A DNA stretch of 5,442 nt, from NCBI GenBank assembly GCA_021815245.1, contig JAKAHF010000202.1:1-5442 (forward strand), given 5' to 3'. The stretch is from Actinomycetes bacterium (GTDB taxonomy: Bacteria; Actinomycetota; Thermoleophilia; RBG-16-64-13). Positions 95-5,442 of the stretch are shown in pieces. The notes under the pieces are model-generated. The model was not told where the DNA came from and did not search any database. It was given only the letters and a program-made list of their open reading frames with translations. The first letter of the stretch is position 1; each line of letters begins with the position of its first letter. Both the position numbers and the translations under genes were made by a program.

Positions 95-489
95 GCGTCG
101 CCCTCAAGATCGATGCGCGCGATCCCACGCCCCCCTACGAGCAGTTGCACCGCCAGTTGATGACGGCGATATCCTTCGGCGCCCTGCAACCGGGCGTGCG
201 GCTGCCATCGGTACGGCAACTCGCCGCCGACCTGGGTGTCGCGACAGGGACCGTCATGCGGGCCTATGCGGAGTTGGAGGCGGGGGGCTTCGTCACAAGC
301 CGCCGTGGCGGAGGTACGGCGGTGGCCAAGACGCCACCCGCGCTATCACCCGCCGAACAGCAGGGGTCGCTCGCATCGCAAGCCGCGGCGTTCGTGGCCC
401 AAGCCAGGTTGCTGGGGGTGAGCGACAAGACGATACTCAACGCCGTTGAGGAGGCTCTCGGCGAGCTTCAACTGGAAGCCATGCGCTGA
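91..489 (+). CDS. GntR-family transcriptional regulator, YtrA-like
   Basis: A cytoplasmic DNA-binding protein of 132 aa, probably a repressor of its own operon. Residues ~10-75 are a winged helix-turn-helix of the GntR type. The opening PPYEQLHRQLMTAISFGAL, the motif PGVRLPSVRQLAADLGVATG and the wing sequence GGFVTSRRGGGTAV are all characteristic. The remaining ~55 residues are a short helical tail, not a FadR/HutC effector domain. That size and layout match the YtrA subfamily, whose usual partners are membrane transport genes. The frame stays open to the window edge, but ATG at 91 is preferred because the GntR domain begins just after it, an AGGA lies at 83-86, and it overlaps the stop of the upstream membrane gene. 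The last 22 bp overlap the 3' end of the convergent PRC-barrel gene. Confidence 0.9.
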   Translation: MSVALKIDARDPTPPYEQLHRQLMTAISFGALQPGVRLPSVRQLAADLGVATGTVMRAYAELEAGGFVTSRRGGGTAVAKTPPALSPAEQQGSLASQAAAFVAQARLLGVSDKTILNAVEEALGELQLEAMR

Positions 490-854
490 TAGCGCTTGTT
501 GGCGCGGCAGAGACCGCACCCGTAGCAGGCGGTGCCGGGCACCATGAAATCCATGCCCCAGTGAAGACGAAGGCGTCGCTCGGAGGCTCGTATGAGTTGC
601 TCGTCTTCTTCGACGGTAGGGGCCGTCTCGACGTAGCGCTTGGGGTACGGCAGGACCAGACGATCGTCGGAGCTCTTGATCTGGTCGGCGGGCACGAGCA
701 CCGTGCCGCCTGAGGCGATCTCGACGAGCAGCCAAGCCGAACCGAACCTCCGGCGCGGATAGCCCAGCCGTACGATGGTGCCGATCTTGTCGTTGTCGGC
801 GTCGAAGAGCTCCCGGCCGATCCAGGGTGTGATTTGGTCAGGTTGCAGGGCCAT
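468..854 (-). CDS. PRC-barrel domain protein with C-terminal CxxCxxC tail
   Basis: A 128-aa soluble protein. Residues ~8-80 read as a PRC-barrel: WIGRELFDADNDKIGTIVRL, then a strand-rich stretch ending in VLVPADQIKSSDDRLVLPYP and YVETAP. PRC-barrels are small beta folds found in photosynthetic reaction centre subunit H, the rRNA maturation factor RimM and many uncharacterised actinobacterial proteins; the role here is unknown. A helical, charged linker (residues ~82-98, rich in E and R) leads to a tail with Cys110, Cys113 and Cys116 (CYGCGLC), which could bind metal or be redox active. The ATG at 854 is chosen over the upstream in-frame ATG because a GAGGGG ribosome site lies 6 nt before it and the domain starts there. 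The gene diverges from the aminotransferase and converges on the GntR gene. Confidence 0.82.
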   Translation of the reverse strand: MALQPDQITPWIGRELFDADNDKIGTIVRLGYPRRRFGSAWLLVEIASGGTVLVPADQIKSSDDRLVLPYPKRYVETAPTVEEDEQLIRASERRLRLHWGMDFMVPGTACYGCGLCRANKRYQRMASS

Positions 855-860
855 CGCCGT

Positions 861-866
861 CCCCTC
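861..866 (-). promoter_or_regulatory. Ribosome binding site of the PRC-barrel gene
   Basis: Read on the minus strand this is GAGGGG, followed by a 6-nt spacer and ATG at 854-852. It selects this ATG over the in-frame start about 50 codons upstream at 1001, whose extra residues do not look like part of the domain. Confidence 0.6.
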
Positions 867-901
867 GCAGGAATGCACATCGCGGTCGAACTGTGCGAAG
901 G

Positions 902-917
902 ATGCTACCACGCGTGG
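902..917 (-). promoter_or_regulatory. Candidate -10 element with adjacent palindrome for the PRC-barrel gene
   Basis: On the minus strand TAGCAT (902-907) matches the TAnnnT pattern of a -10 box and lies ~48 nt upstream of the start codon. Directly upstream of it, where the promoter spacer would be, is the perfect 10-bp palindrome CCACGCGTGG (908-917), a possible operator. No convincing -35 hexamer is seen, so this is a weak call. Confidence 0.25.
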
Positions 918-954
918 GTGATTCGGAACGCCGATGGAGACCCAAAGACGGCGT

Positions 955-983
955 TTGCAGGTCGCCGCCGCCTTCGCTACCCT
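955..983 (+). promoter_or_regulatory. Candidate promoter of the aminotransferase-dioxygenase-heliorhodopsin cluster
   Basis: TTGCAG (955-960) and TACCCT (978-983) are separated by exactly 17 nt and fit the loose TTGnnn / TAnnnT consensus of housekeeping sigma factors in GC-rich actinobacteria. Transcription would begin near 990 and give a leader of about 22 nt that carries the ribosome site. Each hexamer matches the E. coli consensus at only 3 of 6 positions, so the main support is spacing and location. Confidence 0.4.
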
Positions 984-1000
984 TGAAGCGCATCGACCCA

Positions 1001-1008
1001 AAGGAGGG
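1001..1008 (+). promoter_or_regulatory. Strong ribosome binding site of the aminotransferase gene
   Basis: AAGGAGGG, preceded by a further A, is a near-perfect complement of the 16S 3' end and sits 4 nt before ATG at 1012. It rules out the in-frame ATG at 934, which would add 26 residues unlike the family and run through the candidate promoter. Confidence 0.8.
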
Positions 1009-1011
1009 CAT

Positions 1012-2364
1012 ATGCCGGCGCTCGACAGGACGCGGCTCGAACAGGCGCTTCACCGCGAACGAGACGAGTTCGTCCGCGGCCATCCGGGCTCGGCGGCCCT
1101 CAGCGCCACGGCCCGCAAGAACCTGCTCACGGGCGTTCCCATGGCGTGGATGACCCGCTGGCCGGGGTCGTTTCCCATCTTCTTCGCAGAAGCCCAGGGC
1201 GCCCGCGTGATCGACGTCGACGGCATCGAGTATGTCGACTTCGCCCTGGGCGACACCGGCGCCATGACCGGTCACGCCCGGCCTTTCATAACCGAGACCG
1301 TCGCCCAGCGGGCGGCTCGGGGCATCACCACCATGCTGCCTTCCGAGGACTGCATCTGGGTCGGCGCCGAGCTCGAACGCCGCTTCGGACTCCCGTTGTG
1401 GCAATTCGCCCTCACCGCGACCGACGCCAACCGCTTCGTCCTTCGCATCGCCCGCTACGTCACGGGCCGTCCGAAGATCCTGGTCTTCGACTGGTGCTAT
1501 CACGGCACGGTCGACGAGACTCTGGCGACGCTGGCCCCCGACGGCAGCACCGAGCTGCGCCCGTCGAACATCGGCGCCCAGGTTCATCCGTCGTTGACGA
1601 CGAAGGTCGTGGAGTTCAACGATCTCGCGGCCCTCGAGGCCGCGCTCGCCCCGGGCGACGTCGCCTGCGTCTTGGCCGAGCCGGCCCTCACCAACATCGG
1701 CATCGTTCTGCCCGATCCCGGGTACCACGAGGAGCTGCGCCGCATCACCCGCGAAACGGGCACCCTGCTCGTCATCGACGAGACGCACACGATCTGTGCC
1801 GGCCCGGGTGGGGCGACCGCCGCCTGGGGATTGGAGCCCGACATGCTGACCATCGGCAAGCCCATCGGCGGGGGCGTGCCCACGGCCGCCTACGGCCTCT
1901 CGGCCGAATTGGGCGCGCGCATCGACGAGTTCTTCAACAGCGAGGGAGTCGATGTGAGCGGCATCGGTGGCACTCTGGCCGGCAACGCCCTCGCGGCGGC
2001 GGCCATGCGTTCCGCGCTCGGCTACGCCCTGCGCGACGAGGACTTCGCCATCGCCATCCCGTTGGCGGAACGGTGGGCGGCGGGAGTGGCCGGCGTCATC
2101 GCCGAGAAAGGCCTGCCGTGGACCGTCCAGCGCCTGGGCTGCCGGGCCGAGTACTGGTTCTGCGAACCGCCGCGCAACGGCGCACAGGCGGCCGCCGCCG
2201 TAGACCCCGAACTGGAAGCGTGGTTCCACCTCTACATGCTCAACCGCGGCGTACTCATGACGCCGTTCCACAACATGGCTCTTCTCTCCTCAAGCCATTC
2301 GCCGGCAGACATCGAACTGCATACACAGCTCTTCTCCGGCGCGGTGAGTGAGATCCTGACATGA
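1012..2364 (+). CDS. Class III PLP-dependent aminotransferase (glutamate-1-semialdehyde aminomutase-like)
   Basis: A 450-aa cytoplasmic fold-type I PLP enzyme of the class III aminotransferase family; length is typical. Landmarks in order: substrate-side N-terminal region with VIDVDGIEYVDFALGDTGAM (66-85); cofactor phosphate region TATDANRF (135-142); WCYHG (161-165), matching the aromatic-His stacking motif; VIDETHT (254-260), with Asp256 contacting the pyridine nitrogen; and IGKPIGGGVP (281-290), with Lys283 as the Schiff-base lysine. The closest well-known relative by motif is HemL, but the usual GTEA/GSEA signature reads ATDA here (136-139), and no other haem gene is nearby, so a role other than tetrapyrrole synthesis is more likely. 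Substrate unknown. The end is 10 bp from the dioxygenase start, implying co-transcription with the dioxygenase and heliorhodopsin. Confidence 0.88.
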   Translation: MPALDRTRLEQALHRERDEFVRGHPGSAALSATARKNLLTGVPMAWMTRWPGSFPIFFAEAQGARVIDVDGIEYVDFALGDTGAMTGHARPFITETVAQRAARGITTMLPSEDCIWVGAELERRFGLPLWQFALTATDANRFVLRIARYVTGRPKILVFDWCYHGTVDETLATLAPDGSTELRPSNIGAQVHPSLTTKVVEFNDLAALEAALAPGDVACVLAEPALTNIGIVLPDPGYHEELRRITRETGTLLVIDETHTICAGPGGATAAWGLEPDMLTIGKPIGGGVPTAAYGLSAELGARIDEFFNSEGVDVSGIGGTLAGNALAAAAMRSALGYALRDEDFAIAIPLAERWAAGVAGVIAEKGLPWTVQRLGCRAEYWFCEPPRNGAQAAAAVDPELEAWFHLYMLNRGVLMTPFHNMALLSSSHSPADIELHTQLFSGAVSEILT

Positions 2365-2378
2365 TGACCACGCGATGA
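2361..2378 (+). other. Possible five-codon coupling minicistron (MMTTR)
   Basis: ATG at 2361 overlaps the aminotransferase stop (ATGA, 2361-2364), and this frame ends at TGA 2376-2378, overlapping the dioxygenase ATG (ATGA, 2375-2378). A ribosome re-initiating at the first overlap would be delivered to the second. The dioxygenase has no visible Shine-Dalgarno sequence, which makes such a relay plausible. It may also be chance in a short gap. Confidence 0.25.
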
Positions 2379-3148
2379 GCGACAGCCGCCTGCCCGCGCT
2401 CTTCCTGGGGCATGGCAGCCCTCTGAACGCCATCGCCGACAACGCGTTCACACGGGCGCTTGCCCGGCTGGCGGCCGAGTTGCCCCGGCCCGATGCGGTC
2501 ATGGTCGTCTCTGCCCACTGGCTGACCCAGGGCACCCGGGTGCTCACCGCACCCAAGCCCCGCACGATCCATGACTTCGGAGGCTTTCCCGAGCCCCTCT
2601 ATCAAGTGGAGTATCCGGCTCCCGGGGCGCCGGCGATAGCGAGCCTCGTGCGGCGGTTGGTTCCGGAGGTGGTGCCCGACGACCGGTGGGGTCTCGACCA
2701 CGCTTCGTGGGCCGTCTTGCGGCACATGTGGCCCGACGCGAGTGTGCCGGTCCTGGAACTGTCGCTCGATGTGACCGCGCCTCCCCAGAGCCACTGGGAC
2801 CTCGGACGCCGTCTCGCCCCGCTCCGCGACCACGGGGTGTTGGTCGTAGGCAGCGGCAACATCGTGCACAGCTTCGCCGCCATCGACTGGGATCCCGATG
2901 CCGTGCCGCAGCCGTGGGCCGTCGAGTTCGATACGTGGGTCGCCGACGTGTTGACGACCGGCGATCGGTCGGCGCTCGTTCACTACGAAACGGCCGGCCG
3001 AAGCGCCCGCATGGCCTTCTCGACCAACGAGCATTATCTGCCGCTGCTCTACCCGACTGCCATGGCCGGCCCCGAGGATGAGGTACGCTTCCCCTACACC
3101 GGCATAGAGCTGGCCTCGATGTCGATGCGGTGCGTACAATTCGGATGA
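2375..3148 (+). CDS. ygiD: DODA-type (YgiD-like) extradiol aromatic ring-opening dioxygenase
   Basis: A 257-aa soluble class III (LigB superfamily) extradiol dioxygenase. Members use a single divalent metal to open catechol rings; E. coli YgiD and plant DODA act on L-DOPA at the 4,5 position, giving a seco-DOPA that cyclises to betalamic acid. Family hallmarks are all present: PALFLGHGSPLNAI at the N-terminus, VVSAHW, TIHDFGGFPEPLY, WGLDHASWAVL, GSGNIVH and EHYLPLLY near the C-terminus. His13, His48, His165 and His220 are the likely metal-binding and catalytic histidines, with His109 also conserved. Length matches YgiD and no domain is missing. ATG 2375 is the only start available, because an in-frame stop lies at 2357-2359. 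It is sandwiched between aminotransferase and heliorhodopsin genes. The in vivo substrate is unknown. Confidence 0.92.
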   Translation: MSDSRLPALFLGHGSPLNAIADNAFTRALARLAAELPRPDAVMVVSAHWLTQGTRVLTAPKPRTIHDFGGFPEPLYQVEYPAPGAPAIASLVRRLVPEVVPDDRWGLDHASWAVLRHMWPDASVPVLELSLDVTAPPQSHWDLGRRLAPLRDHGVLVVGSGNIVHSFAAIDWDPDAVPQPWAVEFDTWVADVLTTGDRSALVHYETAGRSARMAFSTNEHYLPLLYPTAMAGPEDEVRFPYTGIELASMSMRCVQFG

Positions 3149-3161
3149 CAGCAAGCCGAAG

Positions 3162-3168
3162 AAGGGAG
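3162..3168 (+). promoter_or_regulatory. Ribosome binding site of the heliorhodopsin gene
   Basis: AAGGGAG lies 5 nt before ATG 3174 in the 25-bp gap after the dioxygenase stop. It fixes the start and shows that the rhodopsin is translated independently of the upstream gene. Confidence 0.7.
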
Positions 3169-3173
3169 CGAAG

Positions 3174-3968
3174 ATGAGTGACCGAAAGTCGCGTTCGAAG
3201 CGCCCGGCGGACCAGAGTGCCGAGGCACGCTTCACCAACCTCCGCTGGTGGAACGCGGGGGTCGGATTGATCTTGGCGGCAGAGGCCGTCGTCATCGCCG
3301 TGCTCGCCAACGACTTCGGGCTGCCTGTCACGGCGACCTACATGACGGGCCCTCCCGGCACGGAATCTGCGCTGACTCGTGTCGGCACCTTCCCCCTCGC
3401 ATGGGGAGTGTTCGCCTTCATGGCGCTCTCGGCACTGGCACTGCTACTGATCGCCTCGCCCGGCATCTTCAGCTGGTACAAGGGCAATTTGCGCTCGAAC
3501 CGCAACTACGGGCGCTGGGTCGAGTACTCGGTGACCTCGTCGCTCATGATCGTGCTCATCGGCCTCATCTGCGGCATCAGCGATATCGCCGCCATCCTCG
3601 CGATATTCGGCGTCAACGCGTCGATGATCCTGTTCGGGCTGCTCATGGAGAAGTACGAGAATCCCGGAAAACCGAAGTGGCTGGCGTTCTGGTTCGGGAG
3701 TTTCGCCGGCCTCGTCCCGTGGATCGCGATCTTTGTCTACCTGGTCAATCCCGGTCTCGACGGAGCGCAGCCGCCCGGTTTCGTATACGCCATCCTCGTC
3801 ACCTACTTCGTGCTCTTCAACTGCTTCGCCGTCAACATGGTGCTGCAGTACAAGAAGGTCGGACGGTGGCGTGATTACTTGTTCGGCGAGAAGACCTACA
3901 TCGTGCTCAGCCTGACGGCCAAGTCACTCCTGGCCTGGCTCGTTTTCGCCAATACGCTGATCGGCTAG
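3174..3968 (+). CDS. Heliorhodopsin (type-3 microbial rhodopsin)
   Basis: A 264-aa seven-helix retinal protein of the heliorhodopsin family, whose N-terminus faces the cytoplasm, opposite to type-1 rhodopsins. The basic N-terminus (MSDRKSRSKR) before TM1 fits that topology. Approximate helices: 22-47, 71-94, 113-135, 138-158, 168-192, 201-226 and 238-262. Family hallmarks seen: LANDFGLPVTATYMTGPPGT between TM1 and TM2, RWVEYSVTSSLMIVLI in TM3 with Glu117 as the Schiff-base counterion, DIAAILAIFGVNASMILFG in TM4, PGFVYAILV in TM6, and YIVLSLTAKSLLAW in TM7 with Lys250 as the retinal attachment site and Ser246 one turn before it. The residues match the first described heliorhodopsin, 48C12, closely from memory. 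It is full length with no fused domain. It is last in a cluster with two enzymes, suggesting a light-sensing or regulatory role; ion pumping is not expected for the family. Confidence 0.96.
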   Translation: MSDRKSRSKRPADQSAEARFTNLRWWNAGVGLILAAEAVVIAVLANDFGLPVTATYMTGPPGTESALTRVGTFPLAWGVFAFMALSALALLLIASPGIFSWYKGNLRSNRNYGRWVEYSVTSSLMIVLIGLICGISDIAAILAIFGVNASMILFGLLMEKYENPGKPKWLAFWFGSFAGLVPWIAIFVYLVNPGLDGAQPPGFVYAILVTYFVLFNCFAVNMVLQYKKVGRWRDYLFGEKTYIVLSLTAKSLLAWLVFANTLIG

Positions 3969-3983
3969 AGCCAGGCCGTCCCA

Positions 3984-4008
3984 GGGGCCTGCCGCGTGGC
4001 GGGTCCCC
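3984..4008 (+). terminator. GC-rich hairpin after heliorhodopsin, probable terminator
   Basis: GGGGCCTGCC (3984-3993) pairs with GGCGGG plus CCCC (3998-4003 and 4005-4008) around a 4-nt GCGT loop, with one bulged T at 4004 and one G-T pair. It begins 15 nt past the heliorhodopsin stop. No T-run follows, so it would be a U-less terminator of the kind proposed in GC-rich actinobacteria, or a 3'-end stabilising stem. Confidence 0.45.
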
Positions 4009-4033
4009 GACTCGAGATGCGGGCCCATATGGA

Positions 4034-4067
4034 TCCGGCTCACTCTAGGTCGCGCTAGGAAGCCGGA
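4034..4067. repeat. Second imperfect inverted repeat in the intergenic gap
   Basis: TCCGGCT (4034-4040) and AGCCGGA (4061-4067) form a perfect 7-bp stem. Inside it CTAG (4045-4048) and CTAG (4055-4058) give a further 4 bp around a GTCGCG loop, across a small internal loop. It lies 26 nt after the first hairpin and ~40 nt before the zinc-ribbon gene. It could be a second terminator stem, an operator or a structured leader. Confidence 0.4.
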
Positions 4068-4094
4068 GCGCTAAACCCCGAGGCATCATCGGTC

Positions 4095-4100
4095 GATATT
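4095..4100 (+). promoter_or_regulatory. Candidate -10 element for a leaderless zinc-ribbon gene mRNA
   Basis: GATATT matches TATAAT at four of six positions and ends 6 nt before the GTG at 4107. No Shine-Dalgarno sequence precedes the start. That spacing would place the transcript start on or beside the initiation codon, as in leaderless actinobacterial mRNAs. No clear -35 is seen. Confidence 0.3.
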
Positions 4101-4106
4101 GGTCGT

Positions 4107-4433
4107 GTGATGATCGAACCGAACAACACGACCAAGAACGTGGCGCCGAACATCTTCTGCCGCTGCTGCGCTTCGCCCCTGGTGCAAGCGCGCGATTGGG
4201 AGCCCGAAGAAACGGAGATGTGGAGTGTCAGGCTCTGGTGCCCCGATTGCGACTTCGAGCAGGCGGCGATCCTCGACAAGGCCCAGCTGCTCTACCTCAC
4301 GCTGGCCGTGGAAGAAGGCTTCGCTTGGATGCTCGATGCCCTGTCGCAGCTCAACGCCTCGACCGTCTCGCCCGACGAGTTCGACATCGTCAAGCTGGCT
4401 CTGACCGACAGGATAAGCCCCGCGGCTCTCTGA
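4107..4433 (+). CDS. Small zinc-ribbon-like protein of unknown function
   Basis: A 108-aa protein from GTG 4107, or 107 aa from the next codon, ATG 4110; the sequence does not decide between them. Two cysteine knuckles, Cys18-x2-Cys21 (FCRCCAS, with an extra Cys20) and Cys45-x2-Cys48 (WCPDCDFEQ), are separated by 23 residues, the usual spacing of a zinc ribbon. The C-terminal half (residues ~52-104) is predicted helical by composition (LDKAQLLYLTLAVEEGFAWM and following). No catalytic motif is recognised. Zinc ribbons of this kind bind nucleic acid or proteins, so an adaptor role is possible. It follows the heliorhodopsin on the same strand but is separated by 138 bp holding two hairpins, so it is probably a separate transcription unit. 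It converges on the next gene with a 16-bp gap. Confidence 0.75.
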   Translation: MMIEPNNTTKNVAPNIFCRCCASPLVQARDWEPEETEMWSVRLWCPDCDFEQAAILDKAQLLYLTLAVEEGFAWMLDALSQLNASTVSPDEFDIVKLALTDRISPAAL

Positions 4434-4449
4434 TCGCGGGTCGGCGGGT

Positions 4450-5055
4450 CTACGTCGGTCGCCAGCCGAGAACTCCGGCCTCAGCGTCTTTGCGCTTCTC
4501 GAGCTGAATGAGCGCGTCCTTGTACTTGCCGTGGCGCAGACCGATGACTTCGCCCATCACCTGAAGAAAGCGCCACATGTCGACGTCGACGGTGTCCGCC
4601 GACGAGTCGAGGTAGATGACACTACCCTTGAGACCGGCTCCTTCTTGCCCCCGTACCGCGTGAAACACGGTCTTGCTCATGATCATGTCGACTTCGAGCT
4701 CCATGCCTTGAAGCGCGAGGGTCTTCACGAGTAGCCCACCGTCGTCGAGACGGATCGCACCGGGAGGGGGCGGCACGGGAGCCGCGGCCGCCGAGCGGGC
4801 GTTGGACTGCACGGGTGTGCCGTCGAATTCGGTCTCGAGAGTCAGCTCGCTGGGGTCGGGCTCGGGCTCGGGGTCGAGGTCCATTGGGGGCCGGGGTCCA
4901 AGGTTGACGATCACTGGTCCCATCCGCGCGGGGTATACGAAGGGAGTCTCGACCCGCATCCGCTCGCCCGAGGCAAGACGGCTCTTCAGATAGGGGTCGC
5001 CCCAAAGGAGGGCCAGGAACTCCTGGCGGGTGAGTTGGGTCACGTTTTCGGGCAC
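4450..5055 (-). CDS. Hypothetical protein, DUF1828-like, with acidic/proline linker
   Basis: A 201-aa protein of unknown function. An N-terminal helix (TRQEFLALLWGDPYLKSRL) leads into MRVETPFVYPARMGPVIVNL (33-52) and, after a linker, IRLDDGGLLVKTLALQGMEL (101-120). The order 'V-x-TPF ... strand ... L-D-D-G-G ... L' resembles DUF1828 proteins, which usually read TPF ... LTDDG; I make this call from memory with modest confidence. Residues ~53-99 are low complexity: an acidic-proline run, then alanine and proline. The C-terminus ends with a charged helix. The start is GTG at 5055, supported by AGGA (5063-5066) 7 nt upstream. That site overlaps the stop of the preceding gene, so the two genes are probably one operon. 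Confidence 0.7.
   Translation of the reverse strand: MPENVTQLTRQEFLALLWGDPYLKSRLASGERMRVETPFVYPARMGPVIVNLGPRPPMDLDPEPEPDPSELTLETEFDGTPVQSNARSAAAAPVPPPPGAIRLDDGGLLVKTLALQGMELEVDMIMSKTVFHAVRGQEGAGLKGSVIYLDSSADTVDVDMWRFLQVMGEVIGLRHGKYKDALIQLEKRKDAEAGVLGWRPT
4852..4881. repeat. Tandem hexamer run GGGSTC inside the hypothetical gene
   Basis: Five consecutive 6-bp units (GGGGTC, GGGCTC, GGGCTC, GGGGTC, GAGGTC) encode the DLDPEPEPDP stretch on the minus strand. Units of 6 bp keep the frame, so copy-number change would only lengthen or shorten the acidic linker. Confidence 0.6.
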
Positions 5056-5064
5056 GTTCTCGTC

Positions 5065-5442
5065 CTATTCCGCGGCTGGGGGAACATCGTTGCCGGACGC
5101 AGCGGCGTCGGCTCTACTCGCAGCGTCGGCTCCCGTGGGAGCTCCGGGGCCGGGCCAGCCGCCGGCAGCCCGAGCCTTCTCGGCCCTGGCTTCAGCTTCG
5201 GCTTCGCGCTTGGCTTGGGCGGCCGCTCTCGACTGCATGAGCTGCTCTTCGAGCTGAGCCATGTCGTCGAGGTACTTCTGGCGCAGCACCTGGTCGACTT
5301 CGCGACCACGGTAGAAATCGAAAACGAGATAGCCGAGCTTCTTGGCAAGCCCGTCCATCTGCATCTCGATCTGAAGCTCCCCGACCTTGGCCTTGCCCTT
5401 CTCGAAGGCCTTGTCCGCCTCCTGGGCGGCTCGCTCGATGCC
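5065..5442 (-). CDS. Coiled-coil hypothetical protein (5' end outside window)
   Basis: The frame is open from the window edge to TAG at 5065-5067, giving 125 residues. The internal ATG at 5364 is unlikely to be the start, because the same helical, charged composition (GIERAAQEADKAFEKGKAKV...) continues upstream of it. Visible parts: an amphipathic helical segment, a conserved-looking patch AKKLGYLVFDFYRGREVD, a long helix rich in Glu, Ala, Gln and Arg (LDDMAQLEEQLMQSRAAAQA and beyond) that should form a coiled coil, and a flexible Ala/Gly/Pro tail. No family is recognised. The stop is 9 nt before the GTG of the DUF1828-like gene, whose ribosome site overlaps it, so they are co-transcribed and may act together. 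Confidence 0.7.
   Translation of the reverse strand, partial: GIERAAQEADKAFEKGKAKVGELQIEMQMDGLAKKLGYLVFDFYRGREVDQVLRQKYLDDMAQLEEQLMQSRAAAQAKREAEAEARAEKARAAGGWPGPGAPTGADAASRADAAASGNDVPPAAE

What the first reader, a model, noticed from the sequence alone, without database searches (positions are those of the whole stretch)
1012..3968. Heliorhodopsin in an apparent operon with a class III aminotransferase and a DODA-type extradiol dioxygenase
Seen: three same-strand genes with 10- and 25-bp gaps, a candidate promoter before the first and a hairpin after the last. Known: heliorhodopsins lack a settled function, are thought to be sensory, and have been linked to glutamine synthetase and to oxidative-stress genes. 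Inference: the light signal may act on a small amine/aromatic pathway, for example a catechol amine opened by the dioxygenase and deaminated by the PLP enzyme, or the enzymes may deal with photo-oxidised aromatics. I cannot tell whether this neighbourhood has been described before.
Basis: partly seen in the sequence, partly recalled or inferred. Interest (0 to 1): 0.75.

Follow-up and report, generated by a model that had tools for sequence, protein, structure and literature searches.

The report
Light-sensor gene beside two enzyme genes
A bacterial light-sensing protein gene really does sit in a tight row with two metabolic enzyme genes, but the row was found only among very close relatives, so it looks like one more local variation in where these light-sensor genes settle rather than a new general system.

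Summary
The three genes are real and intact: class III aminotransferase (AT, 1012-2364), YgiD-type DODA dioxygenase (2375-3148) and heliorhodopsin (HeR, 3174-3968), same strand, gaps 10 and 25 bp. The claimed promoter and hairpin do not stand out from shuffles. The neighbourhood is lineage-restricted: AT lies in the fetched flanks of 0 of 80 HeR loci, DODA of 1 of 80; in 249 class genomes no contig carried all three matches. Four relatives carry the window's right-flank genes at a site without the row. It is not unique, though: equal contig lengths place AT and HeR together on three other contigs (HeR 83-90% identical), DODA on one. AT+HeR seems the steadier pair, DODA optional. Function stays inferred. 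In passing: the window's HeR has Leu at both positions of the His23/His80 pair. Of 142 HeRs (near-homologue list left out) 100 are His-His, 41 Leu-Leu, 1 mixed; supported branches force at least three changes of the pair. That bears on a published 'conserved' HeR signalling path using His23 (PMC9385722).

The parts
1012..2364 (+). Class III PLP aminotransferase, NF005453/PRK07046 type, 450 aa
   Evidence: Lys283 and Asp256 (PLP roles recalled) in 120 of 120 listed proteins, the window's own included; best solved relatives 5ykr/5ykt
2375..3148 (+). YgiD/DODA-type extradiol dioxygenase (LigB family), 257 aa
   Evidence: His48, 109, 165, 220 in 120 of 120 and His13 in 118 of 120 listed proteins
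3174..3968 (+). Heliorhodopsin, 264 aa; Lys250, Glu117, Ser246; Leu34 and Leu90 in place of His23/His80 (48C12 numbering)
2365..2374 (+). 10-bp gap AT/DODA
3149..3173 (+). 25-bp gap DODA/HeR with a Shine-Dalgarno-like stretch
   Evidence: by eye
864..1011 (.). Region upstream of AT, between it and the divergent PRC-barrel-like gene; no promoter detected by the scan
468..863 (-). PRC-barrel-like protein, divergent left neighbour; not part of the row
   Evidence: 19.9 bits, just below the 21.2 cut-off; relatives in 2 of 12 genomes (G001, G007), on other contigs than their right-flank block
4107..4433 (+). Small Cys-containing protein (no Pfam hit), first gene of the right-flank block kept in relatives
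4450..5055 (-). Unknown protein of the right-flank block
5065..5442 (-). Unknown protein (cut by the window end) of the right-flank block

Best explanation
This is a lineage-restricted, probably co-transcribed gene row in a bacterium whose nearest HeR, AT and flank relatives are actinobacterial (Thermoleophilia-like) genomes, made by HeR coming to lie beside a broad-family aminotransferase, with a DODA-type dioxygenase as an optional third member. Shown: the genes, their intactness, their spacing, and AT+HeR on three other contigs. Inferred: one transcript. Most likely way of working: HeR is a retinal photoreceptor made together with enzymes useful in lit, oxic conditions; DODA would open reactive catechols before they become quinones and AT would handle an amino or aldehyde compound. 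Coupling would be by shared expression, with HeR's own output not specific to these two enzymes. Its internal relay cannot use the His23/His80 pair described for HeR 48C12 and TaHeR, because both positions are Leu; Glu117 and the remaining polar cavity would have to take the Schiff-base proton.
For: Tight same-strand spacing. Key residues kept in 118-120 of the 120 listed proteins of each family. AT and HeR on contigs of identical length and source: 44,714 bp (ENA), 122,638 bp (NCBI/ENA), 25,757 bp (JGI), the last with DODA. HeR neighbours differ among close relatives: MsrA and MsrB in L001, DegV in L002, an AMP-binding enzyme in L135. In G001, G047, G007 and G059 the right-flank block lies without AT, DODA or HeR in the stretches fetched, and HeR is on other contigs. 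Bulzu et al. (PMC8612252; gene-context section and passages read) report varied HeR neighbours and propose an oxidative-stress role.
Against: No transcript or light data. Same contig is not adjacency, and the DNA of those contigs could not be read. HeR P0003 (85%, 144,347-bp contig) has no AT or DODA of that contig length among the listed 120. Close kin keep gene order for no functional reason. Genome-level co-occurrence in the class sample: AT with HeR not significant (28 of 75 AT genomes, p = 0.24); DODA with HeR significant (12 of 16, p = 0.0003) and AT with DODA weakly (9 of 16, p = 0.025), relatedness not corrected; DODA with HeR not significant in the phylum sample (18 of 56, p = 0.33).
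Confidence: 0.5

Rival explanations
1. HeR binds the aminotransferase (or DODA) through its cytoplasmic loops and changes its activity with light, as reported for AbHeR with glutamine synthetase and OcHeR with an ABC transporter.
For: AT and HeR recur on the same contig in three relatives. Precedents PMC9529153 and PMC11109279 (passages read) tie operon neighbours to binding and activity.
Against: No binding data. HeR partners change between close relatives. In 27 of the 28 class genomes with both, the AT and HeR matches are on different contigs (the assemblies are fragmented); the exception, G077, has a 36% AT relative 3.5 kb from HeR.
Confidence: 0.2
2. Neutral neighbourhood: the genes became adjacent by rearrangement and are still together only because the relatives are recent.
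For: The row was found in 0 of 18 family genomes held and 0 of 249 class genomes searched; the right flank occurs without it in four relatives; DODA is patchy.
Against: AT+HeR retained across 10-17% HeR divergence; 10- and 25-bp gaps suggest joint expression.
Confidence: 0.25
3. A small dedicated pathway: DODA opens L-DOPA or a catechol amine to a betalamic-acid-like aldehyde and AT acts on the product, giving a pigment or light screen next to a photoreceptor.
For: DODA passes the 4,5-DOPA dioxygenase model; bacterial DODAs with that activity exist (PMC12186922, start of abstract in a search listing); AT and DODA co-occur weakly in the class (p = 0.025).
Against: No DODA in the list of 120 has the contig length of two of the three AT+HeR contigs; no DOPA-forming enzyme recognised in the window; in 12 of 29 fetched DODA loci read, no AT beside DODA (G033 and G028 have 40-45% relatives near each other).
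Confidence: 0.05

Closest known systems
HeR operons with metabolic enzymes (AbHeR-glutamine synthetase, PMC9529153; ten neighbour groups of PMC11109279; passages read)
   Same: HeR behind enzyme genes on one strand with operon-like gaps
   Different: Neither an aminotransferase nor a dioxygenase is among the ten groups named in the passages read; the partners here were found only in a near lineage
HeR oxidative-stress neighbourhoods (Bulzu et al., PMC8612252; section and passages read)
   Same: Variable context; enzymes plausible in oxidative conditions; L001 adds MsrA and MsrB
   Different: No glutaredoxin, glutathione peroxidase or catalase recognised in this window; their Table S9 was not consulted
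YgiD / 4,5-DOPA extradiol dioxygenase (NF007914, PDB 2pw6)
   Same: Full-length match above the cut-off, His residues kept
   Different: Substrate here unknown
PRK07046 transaminase (NF005453; PDB 5ykr/5ykt)
   Same: Full-length match above the cut-off
   Different: Not a glutamate-1-semialdehyde aminomutase by TIGR00713 (203.6 against 527.3 bits)
HeR 48C12 and TaHeR (PDB 6su3, 6is6)
   Same: Lys, Glu counterion, Ser237 and Asn16, Tyr92, Arg104, Trp246 equivalents kept
   Different: His23 and His80 positions both Leu; Gln26 position is Glu

Membership tests
Heliorhodopsin | Match to PF18761 / NF038020 above cut-off | tested here: met
   313.9 and 310.2 bits
Heliorhodopsin | Schiff-base Lys in TM7 (SxxxK) and Glu counterion in TM3 | tested here: met
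   Ser246, Lys250, Glu117
Heliorhodopsin | Inverted topology, retinal binding, long photocycle | not testable with these tools
   needs expression and spectroscopy
48C12/TaHeR-type signalling route | His23 and His80 (His82) at the Schiff-base cavity | tested here: not met
   Leu34 and Leu90
HeR-glutamine synthetase operon group | Glutamine synthetase beside HeR | tested here: not met
   no such gene among the eight window proteins scanned
4,5-DOPA extradiol dioxygenase (YgiD) | NF007914 above cut-off | tested here: met
   288.8 against 233 bits
4,5-DOPA extradiol dioxygenase (YgiD) | Metal-site and catalytic His (assignment recalled) | tested here: met
   five His kept in 118-120 of 120 listed proteins
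4,5-DOPA extradiol dioxygenase (YgiD) | Cleavage of L-DOPA | not testable with these tools
   needs an assay
Class III transaminase, NF005453 | Model above cut-off; PLP Lys and Asp (roles recalled) | tested here: met
   639.8 against 425 bits; Lys283, Asp256
Glutamate-1-semialdehyde aminomutase (HemL) | TIGR00713 above cut-off | tested here: not met
   203.6 against 527.3 bits
Operon | One transcript over both junctions | not testable with these tools
   only spacing is available

The most novel reading that the evidence does not exclude
Leu-Leu heliorhodopsins are a separately working class: both positions of the proposed proton-accepting His pair changed together, on at least three branches (direction not fixed), so these proteins send their light signal by another route, and in this lineage the co-expressed aminotransferase is the cytosolic target of that signal.
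Probability: 0.1. Interest if true: 0.7.

Novelty: new member of a known kind. Interest (0 to 1): 0.35.

Why it matters
HeR function is still open, and many clues come from gene neighbours. This case adds a concrete AT(+DODA)-HeR row and shows how narrowly such a row can be kept, which warns against reading function from one neighbourhood. The Leu-Leu HeR clade gives natural variants to test whether His23/His80 matter for HeR signalling, which published work leaves disputed (PMC6951262 and PMC9726877, passages read).

Tried and rejected
Widespread AT-DODA-HeR association: rejected. Uniqueness to this contig: rejected by contig-length matches. AT as a HemL: rejected. Mobile-element origin: no tRNA, no Rfam hit at gathering level, one chance-like 21-nt repeat pair in 480-4450. 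Viral carriage: the AT scan of viral contigs gave no relative; the HeR scan gave one at 48%. DODA-HeR linkage elsewhere: within 8 kb in G005 (2 kb) and G026 (7.8 kb) of 29 distinct genomes with both (12 class, 18 phylum, G026 in both); too few to claim. Among HeR loci fetched later, L132 and L145 hold weak AT relatives (34% and 26%) 3.5-5 kb away. AT-DODA near each other in G033 and G028 are 40-45% relatives. Short contig-length matches between the HeR and DODA lists (918, 1702, 1751, 1826 bp) were set aside as likely chance; two (1702, 1826) share the source jgi and could hold both genes, so they are not excluded. A search for 5YKR gave one unrelated paper. PMC7110647, listed with HeR, dioxygenase and aminotransferase, uses the terms in unrelated places. 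Structure prediction was not run.

Full report
What is there. Searches place three + strand genes at 1012-2364, 2375-3148 and 3174-3968, with 10- and 25-bp gaps. Searches identify them above curated cut-offs as a class III aminotransferase (AT, NF005453), a YgiD-type DODA dioxygenase (NF007914) and a heliorhodopsin (HeR, NF038020). AT is not a HemL (203.6 bits against 527.3). Key residues are kept in 118-120 of the 120 listed proteins of each family, the window's own included. The promoter scan found nothing in 800-4200 and the hairpin after HeR is not better than shuffles. Neighbours are a GntR regulator on the left (91-489), a divergent PRC-barrel-like gene, and three unknown genes on the right.

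Is the neighbourhood kept? A scan of genome contigs gave 80 HeR loci (258 confirmed, best 80 kept; many cut by contig ends). tblastn of the window's proteins against them found AT in 0 of 80 and DODA in 1 of 80: L005, where DODA (74% identical) lies 2 kb from HeR, directly behind a MarR gene and before a pirin-like frame recognised by eye only. In 249 genomes of the class, AT (E <= 1e-60) is in 75, DODA (<= 1e-40) in 16, HeR (<= 1e-20) in 79; seven have all three and none has the three matches on one contig. On one contig and within 8 kb lie DODA and HeR in G005 (2 kb) and G026 (7.8 kb), and a 36% AT relative and HeR in G077 (3.5 kb) (pairs compared by eye from the printed places). In 396 genomes of the phylum HeR (<= 1e-25) is in 105, DODA in 56, both in 18, with only G026 linked within 8 kb (AT was not searched there). 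The family and the order of G001 each hold 18 genomes, all in the class sample, none with the row (with 20 and 24). The assemblies are fragmented, so absence on one contig is not proof of distance.

Where the row sits. The genes to the right of HeR (4107-5442) are a block also found in G001:C182, G047:C10, G007:C122 and G059:C29, of 12 relatives searched. AT, DODA and HeR are not in those fetched stretches (11-16 kb), and HeR in these genomes is on other contigs. An OsmC-family gene lies inside the block in G001 and G047 (by eye also G059) but not in the window or G007. So the row occupies a site where these relatives have other genes.

Closer relatives. The protein database has no context, but it prints the longest contig of each cluster. 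Among the best 120 listed per protein, HeR and AT share exact contig lengths and sources in three cases beyond the window: 44,714 bp (HeR 90%, AT 90%), 122,638 bp (85%, 86%) and 25,757 bp (83%, 88%); DODA (78%) shares 25,757. P0003 (HeR 85%, 144,347 bp) matches neither; P0004 cannot be decided. With relatives' genomes near 2.5 Mb, unlinked genes would share contigs of these sizes about 1, 2 and 5% of the time (own estimate). AT+HeR is thus linked in this lineage and DODA is patchy, as far as capped lists show. Linked is not adjacent.

Function. HeR neighbours change quickly: MsrA and MsrB flank HeR in L001 (78% identical), DegV follows it in L002, an AMP-binding enzyme precedes it in L135. Elsewhere AT lies beside a GreA gene in 6 of 20 loci and an SDR gene in 2 (L084, L098); DODA follows an adenylosuccinate synthetase in 2 and precedes an M28 peptidase in 2 of 12 loci read of 29 fetched (the L098 SDR by eye). 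None of these is shared with the window. Bulzu et al. (PMC8612252; gene-context section and passages read) proposed oxidative-stress roles from neighbours; PMC9529153 and PMC11109279 (passages read) report binding to operon partners. No held paper has both 'heliorhodopsin' and 'DOPA dioxygenase', and the passages read name no aminotransferase or DODA gene beside HeR; Bulzu Table S9 was not consulted, so prior description is not excluded. I take shared expression in lit, oxic conditions as likeliest, direct regulation of AT as a rival, and neutral placement as another.

The histidine pair. Aligned to 48C12, residues 34 and 90 of the window's HeR are Leu where His23 and His80 stand. Of 91 distinct HeRs, 53 are His-His, 38 Leu-Leu, none mixed. 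With 60 phylum HeRs and the 120 listed homologues added, 260 distinct: 100, 159 and 1 mixed (L197). Without the 120 list: 100, 41 and 1 of 142; supported branches force three changes of the pair, which may be gains or losses. Independent pairs: in 3 of 4 the second position goes the same way, in 1 it does not differ, sign test p = 0.25, so the coupling is striking but rests on few events. Residue 30 (Val for Met) changes along in most. PMC9385722 proposes a conserved signalling path in which His23 turns; PMC9726877 treats His80/His23 as a plausible proton acceptor; PMC6951262 finds them not essential (passages read). No natural Leu-Leu form was met in the passages shown; papers outside the held library were not seen, so it may be in print.

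Verdict. A real, probably co-transcribed row, ordinary in kind and narrow in spread; its specific function is untested.

Noticed in passing
window 3174-3968, HeR residues 34 and 90; Leu-Leu in place of the His23/His80 pair; at least three supported changes of the pair, one mixed sequence (L197) in 142.
   Followed up: yes
window HeR residue 37; The Gln26 position is Glu in the window and in 26 of 120 listed proteins, among them P0001-P0008.
   Followed up: partly
L001 6962-7495 (-) and 8780-9334 (+): Methionine sulfoxide reductase genes (PMSR and SelR families) flank the HeR of a close relative.
   Followed up: partly
L005 10258-11498: MarR gene overlapping DODA, with a pirin-like frame after it (by eye), 2 kb from HeR.
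   Followed up: partly
L180, L181, L183 against window 4107-5442: Conserved block of small unknown genes that holds an OsmC-family gene in relatives (L183 by eye) but not in the window.
   Followed up: partly
L090, L093, L097, L098, L099, L103: GreA transcription factor gene beside or near the AT orthologue in 6 of 20 loci.
   Followed up: partly
L133 and L134: 40-45% relatives of AT and DODA are divergent neighbours in G033 and 3 kb apart in G028.
   Followed up: no
G002, G137, G537: Genomes with two HeR matches of different identity to the window's.
   Followed up: no
L002, L004, L028: A DegV-like gene lies within 100 bp of HeR in three loci (Pfam hit checked for L002).
   Followed up: no
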